DNA from: Heliocybe sulcata
Lineage: Eukaryota; Basidiomycota; Agaricomycetes; Gloeophyllales; Gloeophyllaceae
Length of the DNA stretch: 64,000 nucleotides
Direction of reading: 5' to 3'
NCBI GenBank assembly: GCA_004369045.1
Contig: ML213508.1
Coordinates: 224,183-288,182, forward strand
A model generated the notes under the pieces. That model saw only the letters and a list, made by a program, of their open reading frames with translations, searched no databases and had not been told where the DNA came from. Shown one piece after another: positions 17,458 to 64,000 of the stretch (the first letter of the stretch is position 1; each line of letters opens with the position of its first letter). The position numbers and the translations under genes are program-made.

Positions 17458-20400
17458 CTACTGCAAGAAAGCCACGAAAAGATAAGCAAAGAAAGCGAAG
17501 AAGACCATGCCGACCGCAATCACTTGGGCACCAAAGTCAGTCATGAAGTCGTTGACTTCGAAGAGTGGATTCATCGGAGGCCTAAGGGAAACCGAGATGC
17601 GATGCTTAGCCCCAGGGTCGGTGTTGTCGGTAACGATGAACAGGGTCTGTCGGGACTCGTCGTAGACATATCTATCCTTGGAGTCCAAATCCTCCACGAC
17701 GAGGTCTCTTCCCTGTACCAAGGAGGAGGGAACGTAAATCTCGGTTTCCCGCGCAGCGAGAATCGGATGGCCTCCGAGGGGCGGGGATGAAATAGATGGC
17801 TTCCCTGTGGCAGGGGCGGACGGATTGGGGTTGGCCCATTCGAACGTGAAAGCGCCGGTGTTGATCTCGTACTCGAACTTCAGAGGGATTCCAGCTGTCT
17901 TTGCAGGGTAGGGCCGTACAATGGACTGAAGGATCCTACCGCCGTTGTCAAGAGTCGGCGATGTCTGCTCATAGTCGAGCAAAGAGGCCGGAAGAGCTCT
18001 GCTTCGGCTAAACCAGGAGAAATTTTCGCCGTTCCAGTCGTCGCCGAGTTGATCTGTGTTCGAAGGATTATAGTTCCAGAGGCTATGAAGGACGCTTCGG
18101 AAAAAGCGGAGAACATGACTCGATAGTGGACTTACGTGAATCCAATCATACACCGCTCAAGGGCGGTCATCATCGCGTCCATCATCTTGAGCTGCCAGGA
18201 CCAATTCTCGGTCTCGAAAGCCTCTCCTTTGCTGTTTCACAGCATAGATTCAGTAATCTGATACCCTGATCGCCTTATCCTGGAGTATAATGACTCACTC
18301 CAAATCCATAGGAATGCCACATTCCCCGATCAGAACCGGCTTCTCGCCCAGAGATTTATACCCAGCTTCAATTATATTCTTGATTTGTACGAAGAAATTA
18401 TCGCAGGCGCCCTTCTGCCCCCAGTAGAATGCCTTCAAGGGAAACATGCCCTAGAATAAGCAAGATCGTGAAATTGAGAAGGCGAAGGTGCTAGTACTGA
18501 TGCTCGACCATACCCTTGACAACCCTTGCACGTTAACTGTGAAATTGCCGAACGATTTGGTGAACAAGGCATTCAGATCATACCTAGGAAGTGTTCAGGT
18601 TCATCCTTACGAAGAAAATGAGAACGTCCCACCAATGCGGCGCATATACCATGTTGTCAGGTTGACATCCTGCAGTCCAGTTCGAGGGACAGAACTTCAT
18701 GAAAGGAGTCAGACACCAGTACAGAAATAACATCCAAAATACCATACCTCGTTCGGAATAGGCTCGACAAACACGAGCTTGTCATTCCCCGTAAATCTCC
18801 GCACCCGCTCAGCCCACCTTTGAATAAACGGATAATAGAAATCCTGATACCAGTCAATCTATCAGCCCGTATTAGCAAGCCGTCATCACATTTGAGGAGA
18901 TGCAAAAGTTGCCTTCTCGTTGGTCATCGGATGCTTCACGAAATAATTCTCTCTCAAGACCACTCCTTCGTTCTTGTTTCTATCCCAGCCCCACACGCCA
19001 TGCATTTCCCAAAGACACTTGCCTTCGGTGGGACCGTCCTCGCGCCATGCTTTCTTACCGTCTGGATTGAGCACGCCCTGACCTGTGAGGCGAGTGGGTA
19101 TAGGCCATGAGCGCGTCCAGTGACCCACCGAGGTTGGGTGGCCGGCACCGAGCATGAAGGACTGGAAAGCAGTAGCTGCCCAACAGTTGGTAACTGACTG
19201 ACGAAAAAAGCGAGGCAGACATACGGACGTAGGACAAATGAAGATCGGTGTTGTAATCGAATTGATGCAGAGATGGAAGCTGCACATATCCTCTATGTGG
19301 TTCGTTCATTATCTACATAGAATGCATTAGAACAGATCGGCATATTCAAGGTGCGAATTAGGACCTCGAAGCCCAGTACGCCTGGTAGGTCACCAACTGT
19401 CCTGGCCACGACTTCCCACATATTCAGGAATGCATTCTGTAGAAACTGCTGGACCGAGGCTTCAGACCCGTCGCCACATTTGATCTTGGCCTTCGGCGCA
19501 AATGTATCGCCCGCCCAGAAGCAAGTACTGTTCCTTGTCAGTCGACTCCTGGCTGCATGAGCAAGACCCACTTACGCCATGGTGGACGCGGCCAGTTTCT
19601 GATACCCACAGGGCCATATACCCCGCTCTACCTCGACGTGGCCGCCTCCCTTTACTCCAACCAGCCATGCCGCTCCAGTTTCCTCCAAGGACATCAAGTC
19701 AAATCCTACCACTTCGAGAGTCCATCCGGGAGCGCCGGAACCGCCGGAGTAACGCGACCATACGTCCTGGTGCATGGCAACGAATGCAGTCATGCCATAA
19801 TTAGGTAGCAAGGATAAGACTTTGCGTATATATTCTAGATAGTCCGTGTCATAGATTCCGCTGTGGCGCGTCAGAGCGGACAATGACTACTGGTTCGGCG
19901 AACTCACGGTCCGGCATGTTCAACAGCCTCCCACGTCACAAGGAAACGAACTAAGCGGAAGGCTTAGCACTGCAGCAGCGATGGCTACATTTCACGTACT
20001 AAATGTAAGGCCCCATCTACGGAGTCTAGACAGGTGTTCGTGCGCTTCTTCTAGAGGAAACGGCCGACCGACAAAAGTTACTGATGAAGTGTGTGCTGGA
20101 AAGAGGTCATGATCATCATTGACTGGGCTTCAACCAAGTCAGAATCGCAGGGCAGTAAGACCGGTTTTGTCACGCACGTTTTGCTACTTCCCGACAAGTT
20201 GACGCCCCTCAGATTACAGACTCTTCCGTACGCGTCTATGAAATGACGGCCATGAGGGTTTAAGACGCCGCCTGTTCCTTCTGCAGACCAATCGTGTGCA
20301 TAACTCGAGGATGATCCAGGGCGGTAAGTTGCTTCTGCGGACGGATGCACTTGGGGCTGGACATACTGTTCTCAACAATGGAAAGGCCACGTAGACGACG

Positions 20401-21345: not shown

Positions 21346-22094
21346 CGTTTACTGCATCCTGGGATAGACAAGTGAGCTGCGGGAGCCATGCTCAAGAGAT
21401 TCTGTGCCTACATGTGCTCGTTTGGATCCCTTCATACCTATGTTATTCTCGTTGACTGTCACCTGGCGTACGAAGCTTCATGATCAAACTGAACCTCGCC
21501 GCATTCTTGAGTCACTTCACGCTGTTGAGTTCCGGCGTCGAATGTAACTGATATATGCAGGCGCAACACTGGCGCGCATCTCATATCTACGAGCATGGTG
21601 GGAGTTAATTACGCTCCTGGTCCCTATATATTGATCTGATTTAGCCTGTCCATGGCAAGTTAGGGAAGGGCCTCGTTTATTAGCCTGTATTCTGGTGCTG
21701 CAATGTATGCCTGCAAGCGCAGTACTTCATAAGAACATTTACCTATTTGCGCGCTACGGTCTGCTGCCACATTAACGCCGCATAGGCCCCATGTTTCTAT
21801 ATGCTCTTGAACATTTTCCGATTTGCTCGCCCTGGGTATGACCGCAATAAGTGCGCTTCCTTGCCTCTCGGGGTCAGACCTACCTGGTGTTCGTGAAGAC
21901 TACGCTGCTGAGGGTTGAGGGTCGAGGTGCGTTTCATTGATCATTCATGCTTCCAAATATTCGCTCTTGAACGTTTGAACTACAGTTTCGAATTTATCTG
22001 CAATGCTTTAACGGAGCATGCTTAGCGGAACCTAAGGAAACATTGAGAACCGATACGCCGACGATGGACGGCGGGCCGGGCCGGCAAGCCGGTT

Positions 22095-24432
22095 CTATTC
22101 CGATATATTGATAGCTACTTTCTTTATATATGGCTCACGCAGAAGCTCTTTCGCCCCGCCCACGACAATCCAACCCGTAGGTCAAGCGCCCGCTACGTGC
22201 ATTCGCCATGGCGTCAGCTGCGTTCTTGATTTACAGCGGGTGCATGCCGCTCATCAAAATGTGCGACGTGGTCGTGTCTCATTGCGATAGCCTAACTAAC
22301 CGTGTCGAATTTAGGTTCTTGACTATCTTCTTTGGTTACATTCTTGCTCGCAAGGACCTATTCCCACCCGCAGCTTCAAGAGGAGCTTCGCAGGTAACCA
22401 TGAACATCTCCCTGCCAGCATTGATATTCGCCAACATTGTCCCTGCCTTTACTCCGGCCAACGCAGCAGCTATTGGACCGCTTCTGCTGCTCGCTTACAC
22501 GTACCAGATAATTGGTTTCATATTTGGTTACATCATACGTGAATTCTTCTATGTGCCCCGCAATTTCTGGCAAGGGATTGTGATCATGTGCGGCATGAGT
22601 AACTGGGGGAATCTCCGTCAGTGCCTTTCAAAAGTACATTCGAAGCGTCAGATGTTGACCTTAGACTCTGACAGCTAACTCCATCGTAACTAGTGTCACG
22701 ACTCAAGCGCCCTTCGACCCGGATACAGACCCTCAGTGTACGTACCCGCCTGACCTGGCTTACCTAGCCTGAACTAACCAAAGTCCCCACGACAGTAGGA
22801 GTATCCTTCGTATCTATATTCATCGTCTCGTATCACATCACTTTTTGGGTATTCGGGTGAGCGTAACCCTACAACCCCTTCGGTTTTTGGCTGAAGACGG
22901 ACTCTCCGACATAGTGGTGCTCGATCTCTTAGCTGGGACTACCTGCCTGGTGTTCCTCAGAAAGAAGAAGCTGAGCGTCGCGTCTCTTGGAAAGAGAAAC
23001 CTATCGGCGGCTGGATAGCCCGCACTTTCCTCGGCTACAAGCCACCATCCCCAGCCTCGAGTCCGGAAAAGGCCAGGGAGAAAGACTCCACTCCCCCACC
23101 GGACGCAGCCGCACTTGAGAACGAAATAGCAGTAGAGGCGCGAGAGGCACCTGTATTCGAAAAGCACCCCAACGCGGACCCCGATATCCAGCTCGTCAGG
23201 CAGACTTCTCGTCTGTCAGCCACTTCCTTCCGCTCTAGACGGCCCTCAACCGGACAACCCCAACTCCCGTACTTCCGCGCTCAACCACAACCCTCCTACG
23301 CCCCCTCCCTCCCACCACCCGCCCCAGCCCCATCAATAGCATCTTCTCATACCGCCGCACCTGCAACTACCCCCAACTCCCGTTCCGTCTTCCCACCGCT
23401 GCTCGTCAAGATCTTCAAACCCGTATCCGCCATTATCACACCCGTCACTGCAACACTCGCAGTCTCCTTACCCATCGCACTCATCAACCCGCTGAAAGCC
23501 CTCTTCGTGCCCGTCTCGGGCGGTCCGTCCTGGACAGGCCCCGACGGACGCCCGCCCCTCGCCTTCGTCATCGACACAGGTACGTTCTTCACTCTTCCCA
23601 ACCCCATCCAAAGCTCTTAGTCGCATCCCTGGCGCCCCTGCCTCTCCCTCCCCAGCAACATTCCTCGGTTCCATAGCCATCCCCCTCGCCCTCATCCTCC
23701 TCGGCGCCTCCTTCGCCCGTCTCCGCATCCCCCGCCCCCTCTCCCGCCTCCCCATCATGGCCATGCTCGCCGTCTCCCTCGCCAAACTCTTCATCCTCCC
23801 CGTCCTCGGCGTCCTCATCGTCCAAGCCATGGTCCACGGCGGCCTCATCCCTCAAACCGCGCGCGCAGAGAAGTTCGTCGCGATGCTGCTCAGCGGGACG
23901 CCGGCAGCGGTGAAGTGCGTATCTCTCCCTTTCCGATATTGATGTCTGGTATGAAGGCGTATGTTGAAATGTGTATAGTCAGCTCATTGTTGCCTCCCTG
24001 TACGCGCCGGACGGTGACGTTGACACACTTTCGGTACGCCTTCCAGTCCGTCTTTCCCCGTGTGGTCTAACTCTATTGTACAGGCGTTCCTGCTAGTGCA
24101 ATGTACGTTGCGGTATCTCACGGTGGACTATCCTATCTAATCGACATTTCTATTGTAGATGTCCTGATGTTCATATCCTCCGCGTAAGTCATCCTATCCA
24201 GCACAGGAAGGACTCCAAATATTCACGGCCCTCCCAGGGCCTTAACTGCCGTTGCGTTACTCCTTTCTTGAATCCTCTCTGTTTCCATCTAGAGACGTAT
24301 ACGCATGCATCGCCAAACTACCCCGGCGGTAGGTAAAGTTCCAGAAGCCACGCGCGTCAGACTTCATTGTCGCATCTAGACAAGACCTTCCAGCAAGCAT
24401 GCTAAGGGGTGTGGTACGTATCATAAAAGTAA
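22095..24432 (+). repeat. Left arm of 2.3-kb inverted duplication
   Basis: This arm includes promoter, efflux carrier gene and 3' flank. It matches 27872-30160 in reverse complement: the TATA-like TTTCTTTATATATGGC upstream and CCTTCCAGCAAGCATGCTAA downstream are shared. Divergence in introns and flanks suggests an old event. Confidence 0.65.
22208..24271 (+). CDS. Auxin efflux carrier (AEC/PIN-like) family transporter, copy 1
   Basis: Starts at the ATG at 22208 (MASAAFLIYSGCM), with a first intron near 22260. Early helices read FGYILARKDLFPPAASRG, ISLPALIFANIVPAF and AYTYQIIGFIFGYIIREFF. A long hydrophilic loop is rich in Pro and Ser. It is followed by C-terminal helices: AVSLPIALINPLKALFVP, TFLGSIAIPLALILLGASF, LFILPVLGVLIVQAMVHGG and LLSGTPAAVKQLIVASLY. 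This two-bundle layout with a central loop is that of the AEC family, whose plant members move auxin; fungal members are mostly uncharacterised and often sit on the ER. The gene ends at TGA 24271. It is an inverted duplicate of 28014-30061; the two encode closely similar helices but diverged loops. Confidence 0.85.
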
Positions 24433-24536
24433 CTTATTGTATCACTATCGAACGCGTAATCATGAGAGGTCGTTACGTATCATCACATACAATATAGACA
24501 CCAGTCGACTGCGCCACACTCCTACTCTACCCGGAA

Positions 24537-26676
24537 TTACTTGCCCAAGCTCAACCGAATCACATTCTGCAAAGTATAGCCATCGTCCTAGGCGATTGCC
24601 ACGTTTATCAGCCACCTTCAGCATGGAGACAGACGATGCCTACCTGGTCAAGCGACCACGTGAAACACCCAGCCATACCCTGCTGATTCGCATACGTCGC
24701 CTTATCCGCGATAGAGTACGTATCATCGTATGTGATGACAGTCTGCCGCGACACATCGAAGAGGAACTACACCAAGATACTCTCAGTCGCCTTACATTCC
24801 AGGAAAAGAAAGTCGTACTTACCGGCGTATCACTGCAATTATCCCACCCTACGCACCAAACAAGCCTGAATCAGCCAAGCCAAGTCCCCGTACCAGCAGA
24901 GCCACTCACCCTCAGTATATCCATTGGCGCCCACATACGTCCCGTTACTCTGCTTCTGCAAAGCGCCCAGCGCCACAATCTGGTTAAACGCCACCTGTTG
25001 CCCATAATACGCACTCAAATCCCCCGACGCTTTCGCCATGACATCCCCCGTCCTCTTCCCCTTATACCTCGCATGCTCCCCGCCCATATAATTCACAACC
25101 TCTGGAGTCGCATCCTTCCCGTCGTCGCCCACGTCCTTACCAACTACCTCATTGATATCAGGTAGCCTGCACGCCATGGCCCTCTGCACCTCAATGCTGG
25201 GGGCCATCACGGCCTTTCCGGGACGCTTGTACGAGCCCGTCAGATAGGTGGCCGTGCTCTTGGAGACATACCCGTAGAGCGGCAGGCCGAGCATGAGCTT
25301 GCTCGCAGGGAAGCCGGCGTTGGTCCAAGCAGAGAAGGCAGCCTCGGCAGAGGCCTGGGGCTGCGACGAGGTCCCGCAGAGGTTGCCCAGGGGAGCGTTA
25401 GGACCTGGCGTCGAAGAGGCTCCATTGACGTCATAGTTCCTGAAGCCTATAAACCCAAAATGCCAACGGCGAGTTGCGAGCAGGAAACTCACATGATGTT
25501 CGCATAGGTCATGACCGAGGCGTAGGCGCTGACGTTCGTCAAAGGGCTTCCGTTCGACCCCAGCCAAGGCTGTTGAGTCACGGCGGCCGAAATGATCTTG
25601 GACGATCCCAGGGCCGAACGGAGCTGCTGGAAGAAACTCAGCAGGTGTGCCGCGTCCGAGGACGAATACGGGTTGCCAGCGCCGGATTCGTTGGGATATT
25701 CCTGTCCTCCGCAATTTAGCATGGACCACAAGAATCGCTATAGTATCCTTACCCAATCAATATCAATTCCTATAGATGAGGTATATAAGAGCCATCTGGC
25801 ACAGTGGAAGTCGTAACATACCAGCCAACCCGTAGGTATTCACGGCGCTCACAGCAGCATTGACAAACGTGGTTCTGTTCGAAGACGAACTCATCGCGTT
25901 ATGGAACCAGTAGCTCCCGCCCCAGCCTCCAATAGACAAGACCACTTGGGTACCATGGCCACTGTTGTTGGCTGCGGTGACCAGACGCTGTAGGAGGGAC
26001 GTCGCGCCACTGTCCCAAGAGATAGTCGACGAGGAGTTGGGAGTCGCAAAAGCTACCAGAGCGCCATCAGACGGCGTCTATAAGAGCAGAAAGATCCTAC
26101 CGAACAACAGTATGTCGAACTTGGAGAAATCCAAGTTCTCCGGTGGATTACTGTCTCCCACCCAGTCGGGGTAGTAAGCAGCAGCCACCTTGGTCGCCTT
26201 GGCATCAATCTCTCCCAGCATCGTCAACGCAGCTTTCCTGGACAAAGTCGATGGGAGCGCGTCTTCGAGGTCGAAGGCTCTTATAGTCCCAGCGCCCGCG
26301 GCTGACAGGAAGTGCAGCAACGCCGGTTCAGATCGGAAGGCGTCGTCCGCCAGCAGACTTCTTAGGTAGCTTGACAGGCCCGATTTGCGCTCGGCAATGA
26401 GGTCATCGTCGACCCAGGCAGACGGGATAAATGTCGTGACGAGCAGACGCTTCGGTGGCAGGCCGTACGAGTCGCCCAGTTGGCTCTGTAAAGCTGCGAA
26501 CTGTCGCGATCTTTCAATCCAGGCCGATGCTCGTGTGCGTTTCTACATACCTCTGAAAACCTTTTGGCAACCTGGTAACTGCGTTGACCGTCATTTACGT
26601 CGACGATATAAAGGACATGAGGGCGAGGCGCGGAAGCGGTGGTGTGGCGGGTGATATTCACAGTGAGGGGAGCCAT
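24537..26676 (-). CDS. PX-domain / GH18 chitinase fusion protein
   Basis: The ATG at 26676 opens a PX (phox homology) domain: PLTVNITRHTT, HVLYIVDVND, the KRFSEF phosphoinositide motif (split by a 50-bp intron at SE/F), the PPKR turn, and ERKSGLSSYLRSLL. It is closest to the Vam7 type. The exon continues in one frame through a linker of about 35 residues into KVAAAYYPDWVGD, the first strand of a GH18 barrel, so the fusion does not depend on splicing. Later exons carry VVLSIGGWGGSYWFH, GIDIDWEYPNES (catalytic Glu present; the first Asp of DxxDxDxE is Ala), VMTYANIMNYD, and a C-terminal GCFTWSLDQDDGY with the barrel Trp. Stop TAA at 24537. No signal peptide: the product should be cytosolic and bound to PI3P-type membranes, unlike secreted chitinases. 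It lies between inverted copies of an AEC gene. Confidence 0.85.
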
Positions 26677-28013
26677 GTGAAGGAGAGCAAGCTAATTGCC
26701 CTTTTATTGATCATAGAGCAGATACGAGGTTGCTCAGGCCTGCCGAGACGTCATCGCGGTAGCTATCACCTTGTTCTGCTGGATGTCCATGGAAACCCGC
26801 AAATAGCTTGCGCACAAAGTCAGCCGGTTGAACGCTGTGTGAGCATTTGAGAGATATGATCATAAGGAAGTTTCCTAAGAACGAAACGCGGCTTCTTTCG
26901 CGTTGCGGAGCATCTTGAGATACGACACGTGGGAGCAGAGTCTGATGGCGCGTCTGGAGGAGAACAATCATCGATGGAATGCCACAGCTCCTGCGGCGAA
27001 CCGAAAGGCTGGTCTCAAGGTATCGATAGAATCTAAAAGCGAGCACGAGCGATATGCCGCCGGCATCACGTTCAGTGATGAACAGGAGGTGTTCGCCATC
27101 TTCGCAGAGCGCTTCTGAAGAAAGGAGCTTGACAGAACACTGAGTAGAAAGTGCTCAATGTGGTTTGGTGCTCCCTGCAATATGGGCCTACCATCGGCTC
27201 GAACAACTGTGGTCAGCTATGGAGGACATTCTAAGGCAGGGGAGACGGTCGTGGCTGCCGGGCAGACTGGCTCCGTGACTTGCCTCGTATGATCTCGGCC
27301 TCATTCTGGACGAGAATGCCTCTTACGGAACATGCAGACAACGTAGTTGGAGCGTCTGTAGCTGGACGTAGCGTCGAGGCGACAGTAGTAACTGAGAACG
27401 CTTGGACGAAAGAGATACCCAGGAAATTTATGCAATTCCCTTGCTTGGAAGTAGCCATGAGACCCCGGACTCTGCAGCTTACAGTCGAGGGTGTTCTCTG
27501 AATGAGTTTTAAAAAAAGGTACTCAAAACATATAACTCACCAAATTAGATGACATATTTATCTTGTAGCAGAGTTGTTGCCAGGCCCAAGCGTACGAGAG
27601 GCTAGCAGGAGAAATTGGGAGCAGTTGCAGAGGCAACAATCAGAGGACGCTTGCGACCGAGGAAAAGGAACTCAGGCCTCAAGACCTCATGGCCAGCTGT
27701 GCAGCTATTCAAAATCCGTCTTCGGGATCGACTCCCTTTCCCCAAAGGAGAATTCTCCCAGCAGTGATTTTCTTTCCTGAATTTTCCCTCACTTTCGCAG
27801 GATGCTGCTCACCGGAAGCGACACCTATATGGCTCACACCACAGATGTTCGATAGTAGAGCAATCACTTGCTTTTATGACACATAGTATGACCCTTAGCA
27901 TGCTTGCTGGAAGGCCGTATTATGGTGCAGTCACGGCATCTGACGCGCCTGGCTTCTGGCATTTTATCTGCCGAGACCGGGGTCGTTAGGTGACGCATAG
28001 AACAGGAGAGGAT
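26677..28013. other. Intergenic, 1.3 kb
   Basis: Shared upstream space of the PX-GH18 gene and 3' flank of the second carrier. A 75-codon minus frame at 27231-27458 has an ATG and a weakly hydrophobic start, but no family features. Frames at 26711-27180 look non-coding. I see no clear gene. Confidence 0.45.
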
Positions 28014-30160
28014 TCAAGAGAGGAGTAGTGCGACGGCCGTCAGAGCGCTGGAAGAACAGTAAACGATTATAGAATTCATTGTAGTGGATGGGATGACTTA
28101 CGAGGAGGAGAGGAACATTAAGACATCTGCGATTATAAATATCAATTAGTTACGATGGACAGCTGTGAGAGACAGAGATGTACATTGCACTAGCAGGAAT
28201 GCCTAAACAGCCGAGTTAGACCGGGAGAGGAAAGCAGATAAAAGGCATACCGAAAGTGTGTCAACGTCACCGTCCGTTGCGTACAGGGAGGCAGCGATGA
28301 GCTGGCTGTATAACGTTCAGCAAACGCCTTCATAACACATAGCATCATCGGTAGGAAAAAGAGACGCACTTCACCGCGGCTGGCGTCCCGCTGAGCAGCA
28401 TCGCGACGAACTTCTCTGCCCGTGCGGTTTGGGGGATGAGGCCGCCGTGGATCATGGCTTGGACAATGAGGACGCCCAAGACCGGGAGGATGAAGAGTTT
28501 GAAGAGCGAGACGGCAAGCATCGCGCGGAGGGGGAGGCGAGAGAGCGGCCTGAGAATGTGGAGGCGGGCAAAGGAGGCACCGAGGAGGATGAGGGCCAGG
28601 GGGATGATTATGGAGCCAAGGAAGGTGGCTAGAGTGAGGTGGAGGGGGACAGGGGATGTTATGGCAGAACTCAAGATACTTGCTATTGGTTCACGTACCT
28701 GTGTCAATGACGAAAGCGAGGGGCGGTCGTCCATCGGGCCCTGCCCAGGATGGACCGCCCATAACGGGCACGAAGAGGGCTTTCAGCGGGTTGATAAGCG
28801 CGATGGGTAGGGAGACCGCGAGTATCGCTGTGACGGGCGTCATGATGACGGAGATGGCGTTGAAGATCTTGACGAGAAGCGGCAGGGACAGAGAGCGGAT
28901 AACGGAGGTCGTCTCAGGCGCAGCAGTGTGAGAAGAGGCTATTATTGATGGTGCTGGGACGGGTGCTGGGAGGGACGGCGAGTAAGAAGGTTGTGGTTGA
29001 GTGTGGAAGGAAGGGAGTTCGGGTTGTCTGGCTGAGCGCTGTGGCAAAGTTGAGAAAAGGGCAGTCTGTCTGGCGAGCTGGATATCAGGATCGGCGTTGG
29101 CGTGCTTTTCAAATACATGCGCTTCTCGTGCCTCAACTTCTATACCATTCTCAAGTGCCGCTGCGTCAAATGGAAGGCTCGAGTCTTTCTCCTCGTTGGG
29201 CTTTTCTGGGGTGGAGGCCGGGGATGATGGCTCATAGCCGAGGTAGGCGCGGGCTATCCAACCGCCGATAGGTTTCTCTTTCCAGGAGACGCGACGCTCG
29301 GCTTCTTCTTTCTGAGGAACGCCAGGTAAATAGTCCCAGCTCAAAGATCGAGCACCGCTACAACAGGGAATTGCTCTCAATCAGAGACCGCATGCAGCGT
29401 AGGATCAAGCTCACCCGAATACCCAGAAAGTAAGGTGATATGAGAGAATGAATATGGACACAAAGGACACTCCTACTGTGATCGCGAGTTTCGTTAGTCT
29501 AGGCCAGGTAAGCAGGTCGCTCGAGTACTAACACTCTGGGTCAGTATCTGGGTCGAAGGGCGCCTGAGTCGTGATACTGGTCACGATTGAGTTCGCTGTC
29601 GGGTCTAATATCAGCAGCTGACGCTTTGAATGTACGATACAAAGCGACTGACGGAGACTTCCCCAGTTGCTCATGCCGCACATGATCACGATCCCTTGCC
29701 AAAAATTGCGCGGCACATAGAACAACTCGCGTACGATGTAGCCAAATATGAAACCAATTATTTGGTACGTGTAGGCGAGCAGGAAAAGGGGTCCAATAGC
29801 TGCTGCGTTGGCCGGGGTGAAGGCAGGAACAATGTTGGCGAATATCAGCGCTGGCAGGGAGACATTCATGGCTACCTGCGATGCTCCTCTTGAAGCTGCG
29901 GGAGGGAATAAGCCCTTGCGAGCAAGGAGGTAGCCGAAGAAGATGGTGAAGAGCCTAAAGTCGACAGGTTTAGTTAGACTATCGCAATAAGACACGATCA
30001 CGTCCCACATTTTGACGAGCGGCATACACCCGCTGTAAATCAAGAACGCGGCTGATGCCATAGCGAGTTGCACGGAGTGGCTGGACCTGTCGTGGATCTA
30101 AGGGGCTTCTGGGCAAGCCATATATAAAGAAACTAGCTTTCAGTATATCGGAATAGCGCT
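27872..30160 (-). repeat. Right arm of 2.3-kb inverted duplication
   Basis: Mirror of 22095-24432. Outer ends share the promoter segment; inner ends share the 3' flank. The 3.4-kb spacer holds the PX-GH18 gene. Confidence 0.65.
28014..30061 (-). CDS. Auxin efflux carrier (AEC/PIN-like) family transporter, copy 2
   Basis: The ATG at 30061 was chosen because the longer frame starts with GTG. Exon order and helices match copy 1: MASAAFLIYSGCMPLVKM, SLPALIFANIVPAFTPANA, IIGFIFGYIVRELF, then a hydrophilic loop. The C-terminal bundle includes SLPIALINPLKALFVPVMGG, TFLGSIIIPLALILLGASF and ILPVLGVLIVQAMIHGG. The last codons after an intron near 28050 read ALTAVALLLS and stop at 28014. The loop between bundles differs from copy 1 by substitutions and a few indels, while transmembrane residues are kept, so both copies appear under constraint. 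Likely an ER or plasma-membrane transporter of organic anions; substrate unknown. Confidence 0.85.
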
Positions 30161-31308
30161 GGCTTCTGCTTGCACACGTGGATCCAGACGTCGTCAGCTG
30201 CATCTATCCTCAAGATGTGATACTTTATGAGAGACGTCATAGGTGTTTCAATAGCTACCTTGCAATCCATTAAACTACTGCGGAGCCATCCGAGAGCTGC
30301 GCTGTACGGAAAGAGTGAACATTCAGAGAGACAAATAATCAATGGAACGTACCTCAGCAGCGTGGTCTTTACGAACAGTAGTCAGGTCTGACCCTGAGAC
30401 ACGGAGAAGCACGCTCATTACGACCATCCAGTGCGAGCTTATCAGAGTGTCAAACAGTGAACAGGAACTTGGGGTTGATGCGGCGTTAATCAGGGCATAG
30501 GACGTAAATCGGCCAGTGTTCTTATGAAGTACTGCGCGTGCATATACCAGCGACATTAATATCGAAGTTTGTAATAATCCAAGAGCGTAGCGTGGCGAAT
30601 TTCATCATTCGAGTCGCTGAGGGTGATATGGGTATAAACGATTCCCCGTGAGCAGATGTATGCGCATAATCTCCTAGAAATGGCTCTCACATTCACTCTT
30701 CTATCCGAGGATGCAGTAAAGCCGACCGGTTGAACCGTATGGATGACTGGCTTCTCGAGTGATCTGGTGTAATGCTAGTTGCAGGCGGCCCCCGGAATAT
30801 AATCCTCTGGCGCGAATATGCACCGACGTTTCTCGTTAGTCCCAGCAAGTCATGTTGCACCGACAGACTCTGTCGATGGCTGCCTTGGCTCTCGAGCGCG
30901 AGTTTGGTCTTGCATTTGGACAGAGGAGCACAACGAGGTTTTGGAAGCGGCGCCGAAACCCTGCCAGAATACTGCGCGGACATATGAGAGCTTAAACATT
31001 GAACGCGTCTGCTGCAAAAGACCTATGAGAGCAAGGATTATTAATTATTACAAAATCCTAGTAGTTAACATGTAAAGCGGGATAAATATTCAAGTAATTG
31101 TCTCGCCGGAGTCAAAACTTGATAGCTGGGAGCCCGATCTTGTCATCATATATATTAATCGGACCTGAGGCCTGAGAGATCAGGGGATGCAAGAAGGCGT
31201 GAAGTCGAGCGTATTCTGAGCATAGGAGACCCGACTGATCCCAGAACCAATAATGTTACAACTGAGGGTAGCACAGGAGAAAGGAAACAACGTATATGAT
31301 GTCGTACA
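30062..31308. other. Intergenic, 1.2 kb
   Basis: Promoter of AEC copy 2 and 3' flank of the MaoC gene. It contains the second diverged direct repeat at about 30733-30890. Only short frames occur. Confidence 0.5.
30733..30890 (+). repeat. Diverged direct repeat, copy 2
   Basis: Partner of 21190-21345, in the same orientation, although the carrier genes between them are inverted. It is therefore not simply the outer part of the inverted arms. Confidence 0.35.
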
Positions 31309-40475: not shown

Positions 40476-41623
40476 TCAAATGTTACCCACCAGTACCTCG
40501 GACAATTCCTCCAGACTGCCAACCGTGAACGTGGGCTTCGTAACCAGTATCTCTGCAAGCTGCTCGCTACCCTCCAGACTTCCGTCGCGACGCACCCACG
40601 CGGTAGGCGTTCCAAGCAGCGTAGACGGCTCAATACACCGGTAGCCGCCAGTGCTCACCATCAATATTTGCTTCGGAGTCGCGTGGAATTTGTCTCCGCA
40701 CAGGCGAATGGTGTCCTTGTAGGGATCCTCATCCTGCGTGAAAATCCCGCGGACGGAAGGAGTGTCTACGATGGCGTCGAACTGGAACCCGTCCTCCAAG
40801 AGTGGGCGTATAGCGGTGAAGGTGCTGCGATCGACGTTTGGTAAAGCGACGATACGGTAACCCTTCGTCTGGAGCTTCTTCAGCGCGGTACCGGCATCAG
40901 GCCATACCTTCCACCTCGGCGCTCGCACTTTCGTAAGCGGATGGATCTGGCCTGCATCGAGGAGTGAGAGCCTCGCAGACTCCACCAGATCGAAGTACGT
41001 TAGTGTCGTATTCGAGCGGATAGTCTTTGCTTCCTGCTCCAGGTATCGCCTTAGAAGATCCATGGCTAAGTGACCGTCCCTCTGTTTTCCCTCCGTCCTG
41101 GGATACAGCATCTCCAACAGTGCTCCTTCACGATCCTGTTCGTACGAGTCAGTGTTTGAAGGCCTGCGACAGCGCTTGCGACGTACGATGAGGGTGCCGA
41201 AGACATCGAAGCATATGATTCGGATATCCGAAGCGTCTGGAGTAGAAAATTCTTCCGGAGGTTCAGGGAGATCCGGATCCCAGTCCTCATCGTTGTCGTC
41301 ATCTTCCCAACCCACCGGACCAGGTATATCTTCGGGGTTTATGACAATGGTAGCTGGGGACTCGCCATCAATAGGGACGGCCAGTTCGTGCAGACTAAAG
41401 GCTGCTTGGCTCTTTGACCAATCTGTCTCGTTGTCGATCCCCTGGCGTAAGTCTGCAAACTCAGATGCGGGAATGGCTGTGACCTAATCATCGAAAGCAT
41501 CAGAGTGGCGGATCAACGCTTATAGGGTGGCCTTACCGTGCGAGACTGTCGAACGTACGCTATTGTGGACTTTGCACCAGACCACGAATAGTCATAGACA
41601 ATACTACAGGATGAGGAACTCAT
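40476..41623 (-). CDS. HAD-superfamily hydrolase (haloacid-dehalogenase-like)
   Basis: Exon 1 (41537-41623) and exon 2 (40476-41483) give 364 residues. The first 115 or so are acidic and disordered (WEDDDNDEDWDPDLPEPPEEF). The catalytic core opens with IICFDVFGTLI, motif I with nucleophile Asp, typical of L-2-haloacid-dehalogenase-type enzymes. The cap follows, then a KGYRIVALPNVD motif II region, a Lys in DPYKDTIRL (motif III), and a final STGGYRCIEPSTLLGTPTAWVRR segment. That last segment replaces the usual SNxxxD motif IV with a weaker version, so metal binding may be reduced. The substrate is not predictable; fungal relatives act on phosphorylated or halogenated small molecules. Confidence 0.75.
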
Positions 41624-52334: not shown

Positions 52335-52930
52335 ATGGTGAGTCGTGTTGCTCTTGGTGGGCTGCTGGGGTACTGTTGGATGAAGGTGGAAGGAGAAATT
52401 CTGCGGTCCTGGGGATGGATTCGAAGGCTGCAATGAGGATGTATCGCTGGGCTAGGATATGACTGACATCGTACCCGATAGGCCACCTCAGAACTCGCCG
52501 CTACCTATGCCGCTCTCATCCTCGCCGATGAGGGCATCGAGATCACCGTACGTCGCTTTACACACCGTCACATTTCTGGCGAATTCCGTCTAAGTCTTTC
52601 GCAGTCTGACAAAATCCTCGCATTAACGAGCGCAGCTGAGGTCGAGCTCGAGCCCATCTGGGCAACCCTCCTTGCCAGAGCGCTCGAGGGCAAGAACGTG
52701 AAGGACCTGTTATCAAACGTCGGCGCGGGCGGTGCCGGCCCTGCGGTAGGCGCTGCACCCGCCGCGGGTGGTGCTGCTGCTGCTGGTGCCGCTGCTGAGG
52801 AGAAGGAGGAAGAGAAGAAGGAGGAGGAGAAGGAAGAGTCGGACGACGATATGGTGCGTGAAGTTTGCGATTCCGTGTTGAGGCTTGTCATGCTGAACGC
52901 GTCTTGCAGGGCTTCGGTCTGTTCGACTAG
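52335..52930 (+). CDS. RPP1: 60S acidic ribosomal protein P1
   Basis: Four exons (52335-52337, 52482-52547, 52605-52853, 52910-52930) give 112 residues. The ATG stands alone before a 144-bp intron. Exon 2 has [22 protein letters not shown]; exon 3 has [30 protein letters not shown], then the Ala/Gly/Pro hinge and a Glu/Lys acidic stretch. The last exon adds GFGLFD, the conserved tail that binds elongation factors and ribotoxins. With P0 and P2 it forms the lateral stalk of the large subunit. A housekeeping gene under strong constraint. Confidence 0.93.
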
Positions 52931-53812
52931 GCAGCTGTGGTGTGGTTTGGATTGTCCGTATCGTTCTTTCGTCCCTGGTCTCCCATTGTTTGCTCTCCGC
53001 ACTCGCATTGTATCCATTGCAAGACGCTCTTCCTCCGCCCTCAAAACTTCCCCTCCCATACAGCCATATGTCATCTATGCAAATGCAGTATGCCACAATT
53101 TGATGCTCCGCGAGGAGTGTTATAGGAGATTCTCGGTGGTGTCGTTAGCTACACTTTGCACGATTGTCATTGACGATAAATTGACAAAGGTGCGGCGCTG
53201 CGCTCGTATTTCTTCAAGCTTGTGGGCCATTGGTATTCTGAGTGGGACAGATCCATATATTGTCGACGATAGATTTCATGCTCCAGTTGAAACGGAAGGT
53301 ATAGCGATGACTGCTCCCTGAAGCCTCTGCAACGAGAGGAGGTGTCGTATCTTGAATAGCGATCGCTTCTCCTCCGAGTGCGTTGTCGCATGAATGGTCA
53401 TGCTGTCCTCGTGCAATATGTCGCTTGCATGTCAGTACATTTGGAGAAATCTCACCTCTACTTCCAGATCTCTTTAGCCACATAGTACAGCCTTTCCCCG
53501 CATTCCCCAGGCGTCCGACACCTTCGCACCACAGAAGCTTGGGCCCTGATCTCGTGCCACTCCTTCGCGGACACGAGAACAACTCGCGATGCAATACCAG
53601 TGCGACTCGGGCTCAAGGGACGCGGTAGGGAATGCATTTCTTCCAAACGATCTATCTACTCCGTGCAGGGACGACATCGAAGAGGTCACGCTCGGGTTTG
53701 TTATAAATGCGATGACTTCTATCCAGGTGACCAGCTGATCGTGTCCCAGGACTATATTTACCTCAGCTCAGGCTTGCAGTTCATTCAAACATTCATCCTC
53801 GACTCTTGAAAT
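52931..53812. other. Intergenic, 0.9 kb
   Basis: 3' flank of P1 and promoter of P450 B. A minus frame at 53458-53634 encodes MHSLPRPLSPSRTGIASRVV with a Lys-rich end. It could be part of a small unknown gene, but neither start nor splicing can be supported. Confidence 0.4.
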
Positions 53813-58315: not shown

Positions 58316-59210
58316 TCAAGTGCGTAACCACGCCGTCTTCGCAATCTTCTTCTGGCGTTTCTGTTCTTTCCACCGATCCTGCACGAGGTTGAACCGGGTC
58401 AGCATACCAAACGCACCAAATGCCCGTGTCCTCTCCCAATATTCCACCCAACAAAACAGATACAAAACACCACTCACCAGATCCTTTTTCGTAGGCTTCT
58501 TCCTCTTCTTTCCTTCCCGCTCCTCCTCCTCCTTCTGCATCGCAACCTGCTGCTCCCATTCTGTCATGTCGAAGTACACTTCGCTCATGCGCTTCATTCG
58601 CTCGTACTCGCTCAGATGACCCGGATCACGAGCATCGGCCTTCGCAAAGGCACCGGTGCGGGAGTTGAACTTCGCCGTGAACTCGAACGGCACAGGTCCA
58701 GCACTAGCGCCAGTCGCATGAGCTAGGGATGGATCGAGGTACGCCAAGGACGGGTCAATGCCCTGCGCCTGCGCCGCGGCTTGCATGGCGTAGAGCTGTG
58801 CAACCGCAGGACTGGCGCCAGGACCAGGCGAAGCTGCAGAGCCAGCCTGGGGTTCCGGTGAGGCGGAAGGATTGGTCGAGGAGGAAGCCGACGCTTGAGA
58901 GGTCGATGCCGTAGGTTGCAGGGGATTTTGCCAGGTCGTCTCGTTCGTATGGGCGTTGTAGAAGTAGTAGGCGTTGTGCTGAGGCGAGTAGATAGCTTGC
59001 CAGCCGTGAGTGTCAGAGTCAGTAGCCGCCGCCGACGACGTATCTTTGGCGGATTCATTCCCGCCCTGGGCGGGGGAATCCTGGGCCTTCGAGGACGTTG
59101 ACGCCTGCGTGTCTGCAGTCTCAGCCTTGTCGATAACCTCGGGACTCTTACTGTCAACCTCTGAAGAGGGAGAGGCAGAGCGACTCTCACTCGCGGACGG
59201 GCTGGGCATC
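58316..59210 (-). CDS. WW-domain protein, likely mRNA-processing/transcription associated
   Basis: Start ATG 59210 (MPSPSASESRSAS); the frame is open up to ATG 59419, so a longer form with a hydrophobic N-terminus is possible. A Ser/Ala-rich region leads to the WW domain: WQAIYSPQHNAYYFYNAHTNETTWQNPL, with both Trp and the binding Tyr pair. FTAKFNSRTGAFAKADA, an acidic helix and the KKRKKPTKKDL stretch follow. An intron of about 100 bp near 58380-58480 leads to the final EQKRQKKIAKTAWLRT. WW domains bind proline-rich partners, often in splicing or RNA polymerase II complexes. The conserved basic end suggests a nuclear protein; exact role unknown. Confidence 0.68.
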
Positions 59211-59655
59211 GTTGTCGTCGTGAGCAGCGAGCTCGTGGTCGAAATGCCGGGCACAGGGTTTGATGGAGCCAACCAGTCCGTGGGAGACCTTCGTTTACGG
59301 GCTCTTACTGGCACGTGATCATCGCGTACGACGTATGCACGTCTGAGTTTAAAGTTCGAGCGCCGCCACATCAGCACATATGCTGCGATGACCGCCGCGT
59401 ATGAAGCGATTTTGCCCATAAATATCAATAAATTGCCTCTCTCTATAGCATTAGTTTTTTCTACAGCCTTCTATCAGTCGTAAACGTGGAAGTCCTGTCT
59501 CGAGCATCTCCAATTGCATGGTGACACAGGCATTTATCTTCGTGACCGAACAGATCACAATCTGCTGGAATAGCAAACACAAATATCCACCCAAAAATCT
59601 TAACCGTAAAGATAAATAGCTATGTGCCATAGATATATAGCGCATCGACTTCCAG

Positions 59656-61176: not shown

Positions 61177-64000
61177 TGTTGAAGGGTTCCTTAACCTGTT
61201 CCTCTTTGGAACTCCCTTCAACAACGTGCAGGTGGGCCCTTAGATATTAGTAGTGGATGTATCTAGTGCTCATGAGTGTATATATTTGCTTTGGAACTCC
61301 CTTCAACAACGTGCAGCCTTGCCAGCTCACTGGTTGTTAAGGTAGCCCTTACAGCAGGAACAGGTTTCTCTTTGAAGGACTGGGCTTTATTCCACACTTA
61401 GAGGCTGCTACTGGCATCTGGCTGTCAGCGTTCCTTCGCTACAGGTAGTCAAGACCCAGTGGCCCTTCCAGTTGGATCATATAGCCCCCTCCTTTGTGCA
61501 GAAGCATACGGCCTCTCTACTCGTTCCCTGGGCCAAATATGGACGCTGTGACCACCTCCAGTATCCTAGCTAGGCTTGAACAGTTAGAGGCTCGCAGCTC
61601 TGCCGCTGCCATCGAGGAAGTTGGTGTGAGAGAGAAGTTGGATCAGGTGTTGTTGTTGATCTCTGGTCTGGCTTCTGGTGCGAATACCCCCTACTTTTCT
61701 GTTAGTGATCCAGTCTCCCCACACCCTGGTGACCTTTCCCACACACCCATTACACCCCCCACACCTTCCCCTCCAACCGCTTTCGACATTGAGGGACAAT
61801 GGATCCCAGAGCGGGTTAGCTGCTCTGGCACTCCGTGGTCTCCTCCCTCTGGTCCTGGAAACCCTTCCCTGTTCGCACTTCCACGCTTCCCTAATCCCCC
61901 TGACTTTGATGGGAAGCGGGAACACACTCGGCACTTCTGGAATCTCATCTGCACCAACCCCAGTCATTTCCCCAATGACCAGATGAGGATCCGATGGGCG
62001 CTTGGCTTCTTCAAGTCTGGGTGAGCTGCGGACTTTGTGATGAACCTCTACGAGGTCGAACGCGAGACTGGCAGCCCCTACTTCGAAGACTGGGCTGGTT
62101 TTGAGGCCGAGTTCACCCGCGAGTTCTTCCTGCCTTACGAACGTGCGGATGCGGCCTTAACCTTGGTTGGCACTGAATACTACCAGGGTCCATCTCTGAT
62201 CGAGGAGTACATCGACTCCTTCCGTCGTTTGCTCTGCCTCGCTCAGCTGCACTCCTCGGATCCAGGGCTGATGTCCCTGAACGTCCTGAACTTCCGTCGC
62301 GGCCTCAACCCGGAGATTGAGACCCCGCTAGCCACATCTTTAGGCCGCCCTTCTGACTCAGACCTCGAAGGGTGGATCTCAGCGGCGAAGCGTTACGCTC
62401 GAAGCCTTCGTGAGAGCGAGGTTTTCAGCTCAACGATCACGGACCAGACCTGTCCGGAGCCTACTGCAGTTGCAGAACCACTGCCATCACCTGCAGTCGT
62501 CACAACCTCTCCACTGGCACTTCCATCCACCAATTGCTTTGCCTCGCTCCCTGTCGAAGAGGTCTCTGATTCCCCCGAGCCCCCTCCGGTAGAACCCATC
62601 TCAGAGGTAGTCGCATCCACACTCGCGCCTCCACCCCTAGTCCCTCAGCAGAAGCTTGTCCCATACCACCTGCTACCACGTTGGGAGCGTAAGCTTCCAC
62701 GCAAGTACACCGTCTCTGCCATCCCCGGACCACGTTCTACCAGCATCAAGGTGGAGCTAGAGTCTACGCAGACGGCGAAGGTTGTTTCAACCGATGCTCT
62801 GATCGACAGTGGTGCGACTAGTGCTGGGTACATCAGTCTGGCCTACGTTCGCGAACAGGGTCTGCCCACCCGCAAGCTACTCCGGCCGATACCCGTGTTC
62901 AATGTGGATGGTACCCCGAACGAGGCTGGTTCGATCGAGGAGATCGTTGACACGGTCCTCCACTATCGCGACCATATGGAGCGTATCAACCTTGCGGTGA
63001 CCAGGCTCGGGAAACACAATATCATTCTCGGGCATGGCTGGCTCCGTGAGCACAATCCAGATGTGGACTGGCCGACTGGCAAGGTCGCCATGATGCGCTG
63101 CCCCGCTCGTTGCCAGGCATGTAGGCTGGAGGTACAGCAGGAGAGGAAGTTCTGCCTCGCCGCTCGTTGCCTCGATCAGAAGCGTAAGCTGGCTCTGCAG
63201 TCAGGACCAACCCCCGAGGTCCATGTCGAGGATGAGGAGGACGAGGAACCCGAGTTCGACCCTCTGCCCACTGAGCATGGCGTAGACGAGGAGGTCTTGG
63301 AGGAAGGTGATCGCATCTTCATCACCACCCTTGCACCCAAGGAGGAGTTCGTCCAGGCAACCTCGACTGTCTCGCAGTACCTTGCAGAAGCCCATGTGAA
63401 GAACACTGTCCGCGATCCCTTGGACGGCCTCCCTGAGCGATTCTTCGAGTTTAGGGATGTCTTCGAGAAGGAGTCCTTCGACACCCTGCCAGGTTGCAAG
63501 CACTGGGACCACGCAATTGAGCTCACCCCAGATGCGGAGCTGTTCAAATCCAAGGTCTACCCGCTCTCTCCAGTCGAACAAGTTGCACTCGATGAATTCC
63601 TGGAAGAGAACCTTGCAACGGGACGTATCCGGCCCTCCAAGTTTCCTATTGCCTCTCCCGTCTTCTTTGTTAAGAAGAAGGATGGTGGCCTTCGCTTCGT
63701 CCAGGACTACCACAAGCTGAATGCCATGACGGTGAAGAACCGGTACCCTCTCCCTCTCATCGGTGACCTCATCAACCGCTTGCGAGGTGCAAAGTACTTC
63801 ACCAAGCTCGACGTTCACTGGGGCTTCAACAATGTCCGGATCAAGGACAGCGATGAGTGGAAGGCGGCTTTCCGTACCAACCGCGGTCTCTTCGAACCCC
63901 TCGTCATGTACTTTGGTCTGACCAACAGTCCGGCGACATTCCAGACGATGATGAACGACATCTTCCATGACCTCATTATGGAAGGGTCGGTCTGCATCTA
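61177..64000 (+). mobile_element. Ty3/gypsy (Metaviridae) LTR retrotransposon, 3' part beyond the window
   Basis: TGTTGAAGGG at 61177-61186 has its reverse complement CCCTTCAACA at 61214-61223 and again at 61299-61308, the terminal words of a TG...CA LTR. The coding part begins at ATG 61539 and runs to the window end. No transcription or boundary is established at the 3' side. The insertion lies at the broken 5' end of an MFS gene. Confidence 0.75.
61539..64000 (+). CDS. Retrotransposon gag-pol polyprotein (partial, one in-frame TGA)
   Basis: The frame opens with a coiled-coil-like MDAVTTSSILARLEQ. A Pro/Ser stretch follows, then FDGKREHTRHFW and the MRIRWALGFFKSG gag helix. A TGA at 62022-62024 stops the frame directly after this motif; the same frame then stays open to the end. 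LIDSGATSAGYIS (near 62800) is the aspartic protease site, LGHGWLREHNP a linker motif, and FPIASPVFFVKKKDGGLRFVQDYHKLN with LTNSPATFQTMMNDIF are reverse-transcriptase blocks. The YxDD motif, RNase H and integrase lie outside the window. The stop could be a decayed codon or a gag-termination signal; it is described as found. Confidence 0.78.

What the first reader, a model, noticed from the sequence alone, without database searches (positions are those of the whole stretch)
24537..26676. PX-domain/GH18 chitinase fusion without signal peptide
The PX domain (KRFSEF, PPKR, ERKSGL) and the GH18 barrel lie in one gene. The PX end and the GH18 start share a single exon in one frame near 26078-26320, so the fusion does not rest on splice guesses. 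PX domains bring proteins to PI3P membranes such as vacuole and endosome; fungal GH18 enzymes are usually secreted. A cytosolic, membrane-bound chitinase-like protein suggests handling of glycans on the endomembrane side, or a lectin/sensor role.
Basis: partly seen in the sequence, partly recalled or inferred. Interest (0 to 1): 0.8.

Follow-up and report, generated by a model that had tools for sequence, protein, structure and literature searches.

The report
PX-anchored chitinase without signal peptide
This wood-rot fungus has a chitinase-type enzyme fused to a lipid-binding domain, in place of the usual export signal, so it probably sits on internal membranes; the same fusion occurs in many mushroom-forming fungi and has been mentioned in print, but its job is unknown.

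Summary
On the minus strand at 26676-24537, nine exons encode 570 aa: PX (residues 30-108), a linker, and a complete GH18 domain (149-555), both above Pfam cut-offs. The protein is letter for letter an NCBI entry of Heliocybe sulcata.

It is not a one-off: the 120 best-scoring of 585 hits (its own entry included) carry PX plus GH18; seven Agaricomycete orders were checked. PI3P-type and GH18 catalytic residues are kept in 117-120 of 120. No signal peptide is seen (hydrophobic start in 0 of 120; sister group 42 of 52). The nearest PX in this genome is a Vam7/Yup1-type PX-SNARE. Sister GH18s are mostly secreted, so PX appears to have replaced a signal peptide.

The architecture is in print: a Phanerochaete chrysosporium PX-chitinase, cited as expressed but chitinolytically inactive, and one in Ganoderma boninense. 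New here: apparent PX origin, family breadth, a conserved linker motif and a retained cysteine pair.

Best reading: a GH18 enzyme held on PI3P membranes from the cytosol. Lipid binding, location, substrate and activity are untested.

The parts
24537..26676 (-). PX-GH18 gene, nine exons, 570 aa
   Evidence: gene model; identical to P0001; Pfam
26551..26676 (-). exon 1: start codon, first PX strands, up to KRFSE
   Evidence: start conserved in family
26101..26500 (-). exon 2, the shared exon: PX from residue 43 on (LPPKR, ERKSGL), linker, first GH18 strand
26237..26266 (-). conserved linker motif EDALPSTLSR (residues 121-130), low model confidence
   Evidence: 0.78-0.99 per position in 120; pLDDT 41 for block 121-130
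25822..26052 (-). exon 3, GH18
25753..25769 (-). exon 4 (17 nt): IDIDW, catalytic D255 (25764-25762) and D257 (25758-25756)
   Evidence: conservation
25493..25701 (-). exon 5: catalytic E259 (25701-25699)
24910..25439 (-). exon 6: NYD of MNYD (residues 329-331, M328 split over the intron), C349, variable low-confidence insert from about residue 397
24823..24848 (-). exon 7 (26 nt): GWDNCSDTP with C509
24644..24766 (-). exon 8: CFTWSLD with W550
24537..24587 (-). exon 9 and stop codon

Best explanation
It is a leaderless GH18 protein that its N-terminal PX domain recruits from the cytosol to PI3P-bearing membranes (early endosomes, vacuole). The gene apparently arose once in an Agaricomycete ancestor, when the signal peptide and stalk of a secreted GH18 enzyme were replaced by a PX domain of the Vam7/Yup1 SNARE type. 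The GH18 barrel keeps its catalytic set and most likely hydrolyses a GlcNAc-containing glycan at or inside the endosomal-vacuolar system. SHOWN: the fusion, its conservation, the PX sequence affinity within this genome, the mostly secreted sister group, intact catalytic residues. INFERRED: single origin and direction of change, PI3P binding, location, activity and substrate.
Against: A P. chrysosporium PX-chitinase is cited as expressed but chitinolytically inactive (PMC8097845; the primary paper is not held). The cysteine pair C349/C509 is kept in 120 of 120, which a permanently reducing location would not require. The first Asp of DxxDxDxE is Ala in Heliocybe (10 of 120 Ala, 107 Asp). The gene tree places Auriculariales rows among Agaricales rows and one PX-less row (P0140) outside all PX rows, so a single old vertical origin is not shown. 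No lipid-binding, localisation or activity data were found for this protein. The structure search did not test the PX part.
Confidence: 0.5

Rival explanations
1. Unconventional export: PX loads a leaderless chitinase onto PI3P early endosomes, which carry it to septa or tips, or into multivesicular bodies and the vacuole, where the GH18 domain meets chitin. It would be an in-cis counterpart of the Ustilago Cts1/Jps1 pair.
For: Leaderless GH18 Cts1 is exported in U. maydis with the phosphoinositide-binding partner Jps1, and Yup1-positive PI3P endosomes gather at septation sites (PMC12167484, passages). The cysteine pair C349/C509 is retained in 120 of 120 PX rows, as in 154 of 155 sister rows at each site, and both are lost together in 3 of the 4 rows (of 287) that lack either, which fits a disulfide and later exposure to an oxidising space.
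Against: The smut relatives with a full N-terminus found for this GH18 subfamily mostly start like signal peptides, so the PX-GH18 is probably not the Cts1 orthologue; U. maydis Cts1 itself was not found or compared. Cts1 and Jps1 were not seen on motile endosomes (PMC7358432 passage). The cited inactivity fits an exported chitinase poorly. A buried cysteine pair may be kept without a disulfide.
Confidence: 0.22
2. A non-hydrolytic glycan sensor or lectin on endosomal membranes: GH18 binds a GlcNAc glycan without cutting it.
For: Cited chitinolytic inactivity of the P. chrysosporium protein. Chitinase-like lectins share the fold (Ym1). Position 333 (MNYDVx) varies: 63 W, 46 F, 10 N of 120, and Heliocybe has N.
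Against: D255, D257, E259, Y330, D331 and W550 are kept in 119-120 of 120, more than binding alone usually requires.
Confidence: 0.2
3. Annotation artefact: two neighbouring genes, or a GH18 transcript starting at an internal Met.
For: There is a Met (M136) between PX and GH18; some listed family gene models lack PX.
Against: Shared exon in one frame; the same fusion with a conserved linker in the 120 best-scoring proteins. M136 is not conserved: the commonest residue there is L, at 0.57.
Confidence: 0.02

Closest known systems
PX-domain chitinases of Phanerochaete chrysosporium (Karlsson et al. 2016) and Ganoderma boninense (PMC8097845)
   Same: Chitinase-type protein with a PX domain; white-rot Agaricomycetes; relatives such as Phanerochaete sordida P0023 and Ganoderma P0005, P0022 are in the homolog list
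   Different: I saw only the passage in PMC8097845; no sequence of either named protein was compared. One is cited as inactive; that passage gives no origin, membrane role or family breadth.
Ustilago maydis Cts1/Jps1 unconventional secretion
   Same: GH18 chitinase without signal peptide linked to phosphoinositide binding, in Basidiomycota
   Different: Two proteins in trans; Jps1 prefers PI(4,5)P2 and has no canonical PIP-binding domain; smut relatives of the present subfamily with a full N-terminus mostly look secreted
Vam7/Yup1-type PX-SNARE (L034 in this genome)
   Same: PX domain 34% identical, aligning from residue 5 on; Yup1 PX served as a PI3P-binding positive control in PMC12167484
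   Different: Carries a SNARE motif instead of GH18
Secreted basidiomycete GH18 (for example smut P0242-P0246) and RmChi1 of Rhizomucor miehei
   Same: Same GH18 fold and catalytic set; the basidiomycete ones share the cysteine pair, RmChi1 does not
   Different: No PX found; hydrophobic start in 42 of 52 sister proteins with a full N-terminus, often with a Ser/Thr-rich stalk

Membership tests
GH18 (PF00704) | Profile match over the curated cut-off | tested here: met
   182.9 bits against 29.6, residues 149-555
GH18 (PF00704) | DxDxE catalytic core, MxYD tyrosine and aspartate, barrel-end Trp | tested here: met
   D255, D257, E259, Y330, D331, W550 present and near-invariant; first Asp of DxxDxDxE is Ala here
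GH18 (PF00704) | TIM-barrel fold like solved chitinases | tested here: met
GH18 (PF00704) | Chitinase activity | not testable with these tools
   A relative is cited as inactive (citing sentence)
PX domain (PF00787) | Profile match over the curated cut-off | tested here: met
   40.6 bits against 21.6, residues 30-108
PX domain (PF00787) | PI3P-type residues (R, aromatic, K, R; p40phox R58, Y59, K92, R105 recalled) | tested here: met
   R39 and F40 align with the p40phox RY; conservation; the match of K59 and R80 to K92 and R105 is by motif, recalled
PX domain (PF00787) | PX fold by structure comparison | tested here: inconclusive
   GH18 filled the list; the PX part was not searched alone
PX domain (PF00787) | Binds PI3P | not testable with these tools
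   No binding data
Cts1/Jps1 lock-type secretion | GH18 without signal peptide | tested here: met
   Hydropathy and conserved start, (not SignalP)
Cts1/Jps1 lock-type secretion | GH18 orthologous to Cts1 | tested here: inconclusive
   Smut relatives with a full N-terminus mostly look secreted; Cts1 itself was not retrieved
Cts1/Jps1 lock-type secretion | Extracellular activity dependent on a PIP-binding partner | not testable with these tools
   Needs experiment
Vam7/Yup1 SNARE | PX plus SNARE motif | tested here: not met
   Only PX and GH18 found; PX affinity only

The most novel reading that the evidence does not exclude
Mushroom-forming fungi turned a secreted chitinase into a PI3P-endosome rider by swapping its signal peptide for the PX domain of a Vam7/Yup1 SNARE. 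The enzyme then reaches septa, the vacuole or the cell surface by a signal-peptide-free route, an in-cis counterpart of the two-protein Cts1/Jps1 system, with the conserved EDALPSTLSR linker as the sorting or regulatory signal.
Probability: 0.2. Interest if true: 0.75.

Novelty: new member of a known kind. Interest (0 to 1): 0.5.

Why it matters
Fungal chitinases are treated as secreted cell-wall enzymes. A family found in at least seven Agaricomycete orders, with near-invariant catalytic residues and a PI3P-type anchor, means that some GH18 chemistry or binding occurs on the cytosolic side of endosomes, or that leaderless export of chitinases evolved a second time. Either is directly testable in transformable mushrooms, and the cited lack of chitinase activity would point to an unknown substrate.

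Tried and rejected
Two-gene or mis-annotation reading: rejected on the shared exon and the fused architecture in the 120 best-scoring proteins. Chance PX resemblance: rejected on Pfam score, p40phox and CISK PX alignments, and residue conservation.

Cts1 orthology: the search with the smut relative P0174 returned enzymes that mostly look secreted where the N-terminus is full. P0241 (498 aa) lacks the hydrophobic start, but the longer model P0244 (535 aa, same species) has it. U. maydis Cts1 was not identified by name among the rows listed.

The signal-peptide check is a hydropathy heuristic, not SignalP. At a cut of 1.6 instead of 2.0 it flags 2 of 120 PX rows and 49 of 52 sister rows. With a shorter 8-residue window 8 of 120 PX rows reach 2.2, the ones shown because the first PX strand is hydrophobic, against 48 of 52 sister rows; 106 sister rows with short N-termini could not be judged and were left out of the 52.

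PX tree: L034 sits with the PX-GH18 rows, but the very long L007 row falls inside them and most forks are open; I rely on scores, not on this tree. The GH18 tree is a quick tree without bootstrap; rooting on the sister group is an assumption. In it P0140 falls outside all PX rows and P0132 in an open fork, so a first PX-less stage is not excluded, and the Auriculariales rows sit among Agaricales rows (SH-aLRT 82-93), so transfer between orders or poor resolution is not excluded and I give no age. Sequon density is higher in PX rows from residue 146 on (1.17 per 100 aa) than in whole sister rows (0.68); this does not support a cytosolic life and I draw nothing from it. The Foldseek and VIA lists are filled by GH18; PX was not tested alone. 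The model has pTM 0.69, so the relative placing of the two domains is not used.

Prior art: searches 'PX domain'+chitinase+GH18 (0 papers), 'phox homology'+chitinase+basidiomycete, 'PX domain'+chitinase+fungi+PI3P, chitinase/PF00787/PF00704 (75 papers hold at least two of the three terms, 15 listed, none of these with PF00787), 'PX domain'+chitinase and 'PX domain'+glycoside hydrolase+basidiomycete. Only PMC8097845 was found to describe a PX chitinase; of the nine I opened only that one. The 373-genome GH18 survey PMC8042737 has no hit for PF00787, phox or 'PX domain' in its main text.

Full report
WHAT IS THERE. The minus-strand gene at 26676-24537 has nine exons separated by eight GT-AG introns of 48-61 nt and encodes 570 residues. 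Pfam finds PX at residues 30-108 (40.6 bits, cut-off 21.6) and GH18 at 149-555 (182.9 bits, cut-off 29.6). The translation is identical to P0001, an NCBI protein of Heliocybe sulcata, order Gloeophyllales (a brown-rot mushroom, recalled). Exon 26500-26101 carries PX from residue 43 on, the linker and the first GH18 strand in one frame. Residues 1-42 lie in exon 1, so KRFSEF crosses intron 1. An in-frame TAG is the sixth codon upstream of the ATG.

HOW WIDESPREAD. The search with the whole protein gave 585 hits among 7992 scored candidates; the 120 best, the protein's own entry included, are listed. Of these, 119 have PX and GH18 precomputed. The remaining one, P0033, has PX by a profile I built, and that profile matches 120 of 120 (71 of its 77 rows are among those 120, so the match is partly by construction). 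Orders checked by taxonomy: Gloeophyllales, Auriculariales, Gomphales, Russulales, Geastrales, Atheliales and Corticiales; Polyporales and Agaricales members are also listed (orders recalled). Only the best 120 hits were visible, so absence from other orders is not shown. In this genome the window gene is the only place where PX and GH18 matches coincide, among 12 PX and 15 GH18 frame matches.

THE PX END. R39, aromatic 40, K59 and R80 correspond to the PI3P-binding set of p40phox (R58, Y59, K92 and R105, recalled; R39 and F40 align with the p40phox RY). They are kept in 119, 119, 117 and 119 of 120. In this genome the only other PX match to the N-terminal 175 residues at E<=0.001 is L026/L034 (34% identity). 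Its open frame matches the Vam7 PX structure 1kmd and a syntaxin-8 SNARE chain 1gl2, so I take it as the Vam7/Yup1-type SNARE. The family profile gives it 69 bits, against 28 for the next of eight distinct PX places scored; three further PX places were not fetched or scored with the profile.

WHERE IT CAME FROM. A shortened GH18 query brought up PX-less relatives, and a further search brought up smut homologs. Most sister-group proteins with a full N-terminus start with a hydrophobic stretch (12-mer mean hydropathy of 2.0 or more in 42 of 52, against 0 of 120 PX rows), and many, the smut rows above all, go on with a Ser/Thr-rich stalk. A further 106 sister rows have short N-termini and could not be judged. 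No PX was found among P0151-P0309. In a 77-row GH18 tree the 26 sister rows split from the 51 PX and near rows at SH-aLRT 100. Of the 12 PX-less near rows, P0140 falls outside all PX rows and P0132 in an open fork; the other ten lie among PX rows, and PX presence needs 8 changes (6 forced by starred branches). I read this as one gain of PX followed by repeated loss, but the tree is a quick one and an early PX-less stage is not excluded. Against a simple old vertical history, the four Auriculariales rows sit among Agaricales rows (SH-aLRT 82-93), so I claim no age. One PX-less copy, Rhodonia P0123, has a hydrophobic start like a signal peptide (hydropathy 2.53).

TWO CLUES NOT EXPLAINED BY A SIMPLE CYTOSOLIC ENZYME. 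First, C349 and C509 are each kept in 120 of 120 PX rows and 154 of 155 sister rows. Of 287 rows, 283 have both, 3 lack both and 1 lacks one, which looks like a disulfide inherited from secreted ancestors and still kept. C547 is in 116 of 120 PX rows and 10 of 155 sister rows. Second, the linker EDALPSTLSR (121-130) is conserved (0.78-0.99 per position in 120) although the model gives it low confidence (mean pLDDT 41 for that block). This fits a short linear motif of unknown partner.

WHAT IS IN PRINT. PMC8097845 (passages read) states that a modular chitinase with a PX domain is up-regulated in Ganoderma boninense on oil palm, and that a PX chitinase of Phanerochaete chrysosporium was expressed but chitinolytically inactive, citing Karlsson, Stenlid and Lindahl 2016, which is not held. 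So the architecture is known. PMC8042737 (passages read), a GH18 survey of 373 fungal genomes, does not mention PX in its main text. PMC12167484 (abstract, section 11 and passages) and PMC7358432 (passages) describe the leaderless GH18 Cts1 and its partner Jps1 in U. maydis; PMC12167484 adds Jps1's phosphoinositide binding, PI3P early endosomes at septation sites, and a GH18 without predicted signal peptide in the mushroom Hebeloma cylindrosporum. I could not compare that protein.

MECHANISM. Most likely the PX domain holds the protein on the cytosolic face of PI3P membranes and the GH18 barrel acts on a GlcNAc-containing glycan there or after delivery into the vacuole (0.5). Leaderless export through endosomes (0.22) explains the kept cysteine pair better. 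A non-hydrolytic sensor (0.2) explains the cited inactivity but not the near-invariant catalytic residues. The fusion and its conservation are shown; its history is read from a quick tree; lipid binding, location, activity and substrate are inferred.

VERDICT. Its apparent SNARE-type PX origin, breadth, linker motif and cysteine pair were not met in the searches named under Tried and rejected, and make the question of GH18 function on endomembranes testable.

Noticed in passing
window 21712-24453 and 27847-30542: The PX-GH18 gene sits in the centre of an inverted segmental duplication (arms of about 2.7 kb, aligned blocks 72-88% complementary); the right arm holds a PF03547 membrane-transporter (auxin-efflux-carrier-type) reading frame, and the left arm is its inverted copy.
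   Followed up: partly
window 26237-26266 (residues 121-130): Conserved but low-confidence linker motif EDALPSTLSR between PX and GH18; partner unknown.
   Followed up: partly
window 26100-26053: Intron 2 has a second possible acceptor 23 nt after the donor (ending 26078) beside the 48-nt one; the 48-nt intron gives the GH18 sequence found in P0001.
   Followed up: partly
window 62025-63998 (+): Retroelement reading frame with reverse transcriptase and aspartyl protease matches.
   Followed up: no
window 17461-18156 (-), 52482-53318 (+), 58319-59470 (-), 40479-41483 (-): ORFs with GH5 C-terminal, 60S acidic ribosomal protein, WW and HAD-hydrolase domains.
   Followed up: no
P0123 (Rhodonia placenta), P0124, P0125, P0143, P0152: PX-less copies nested in the PX clade; P0123 shows a signal-peptide-like start, others a more basic leader: a natural experiment in loss of the anchor.
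   Followed up: partly
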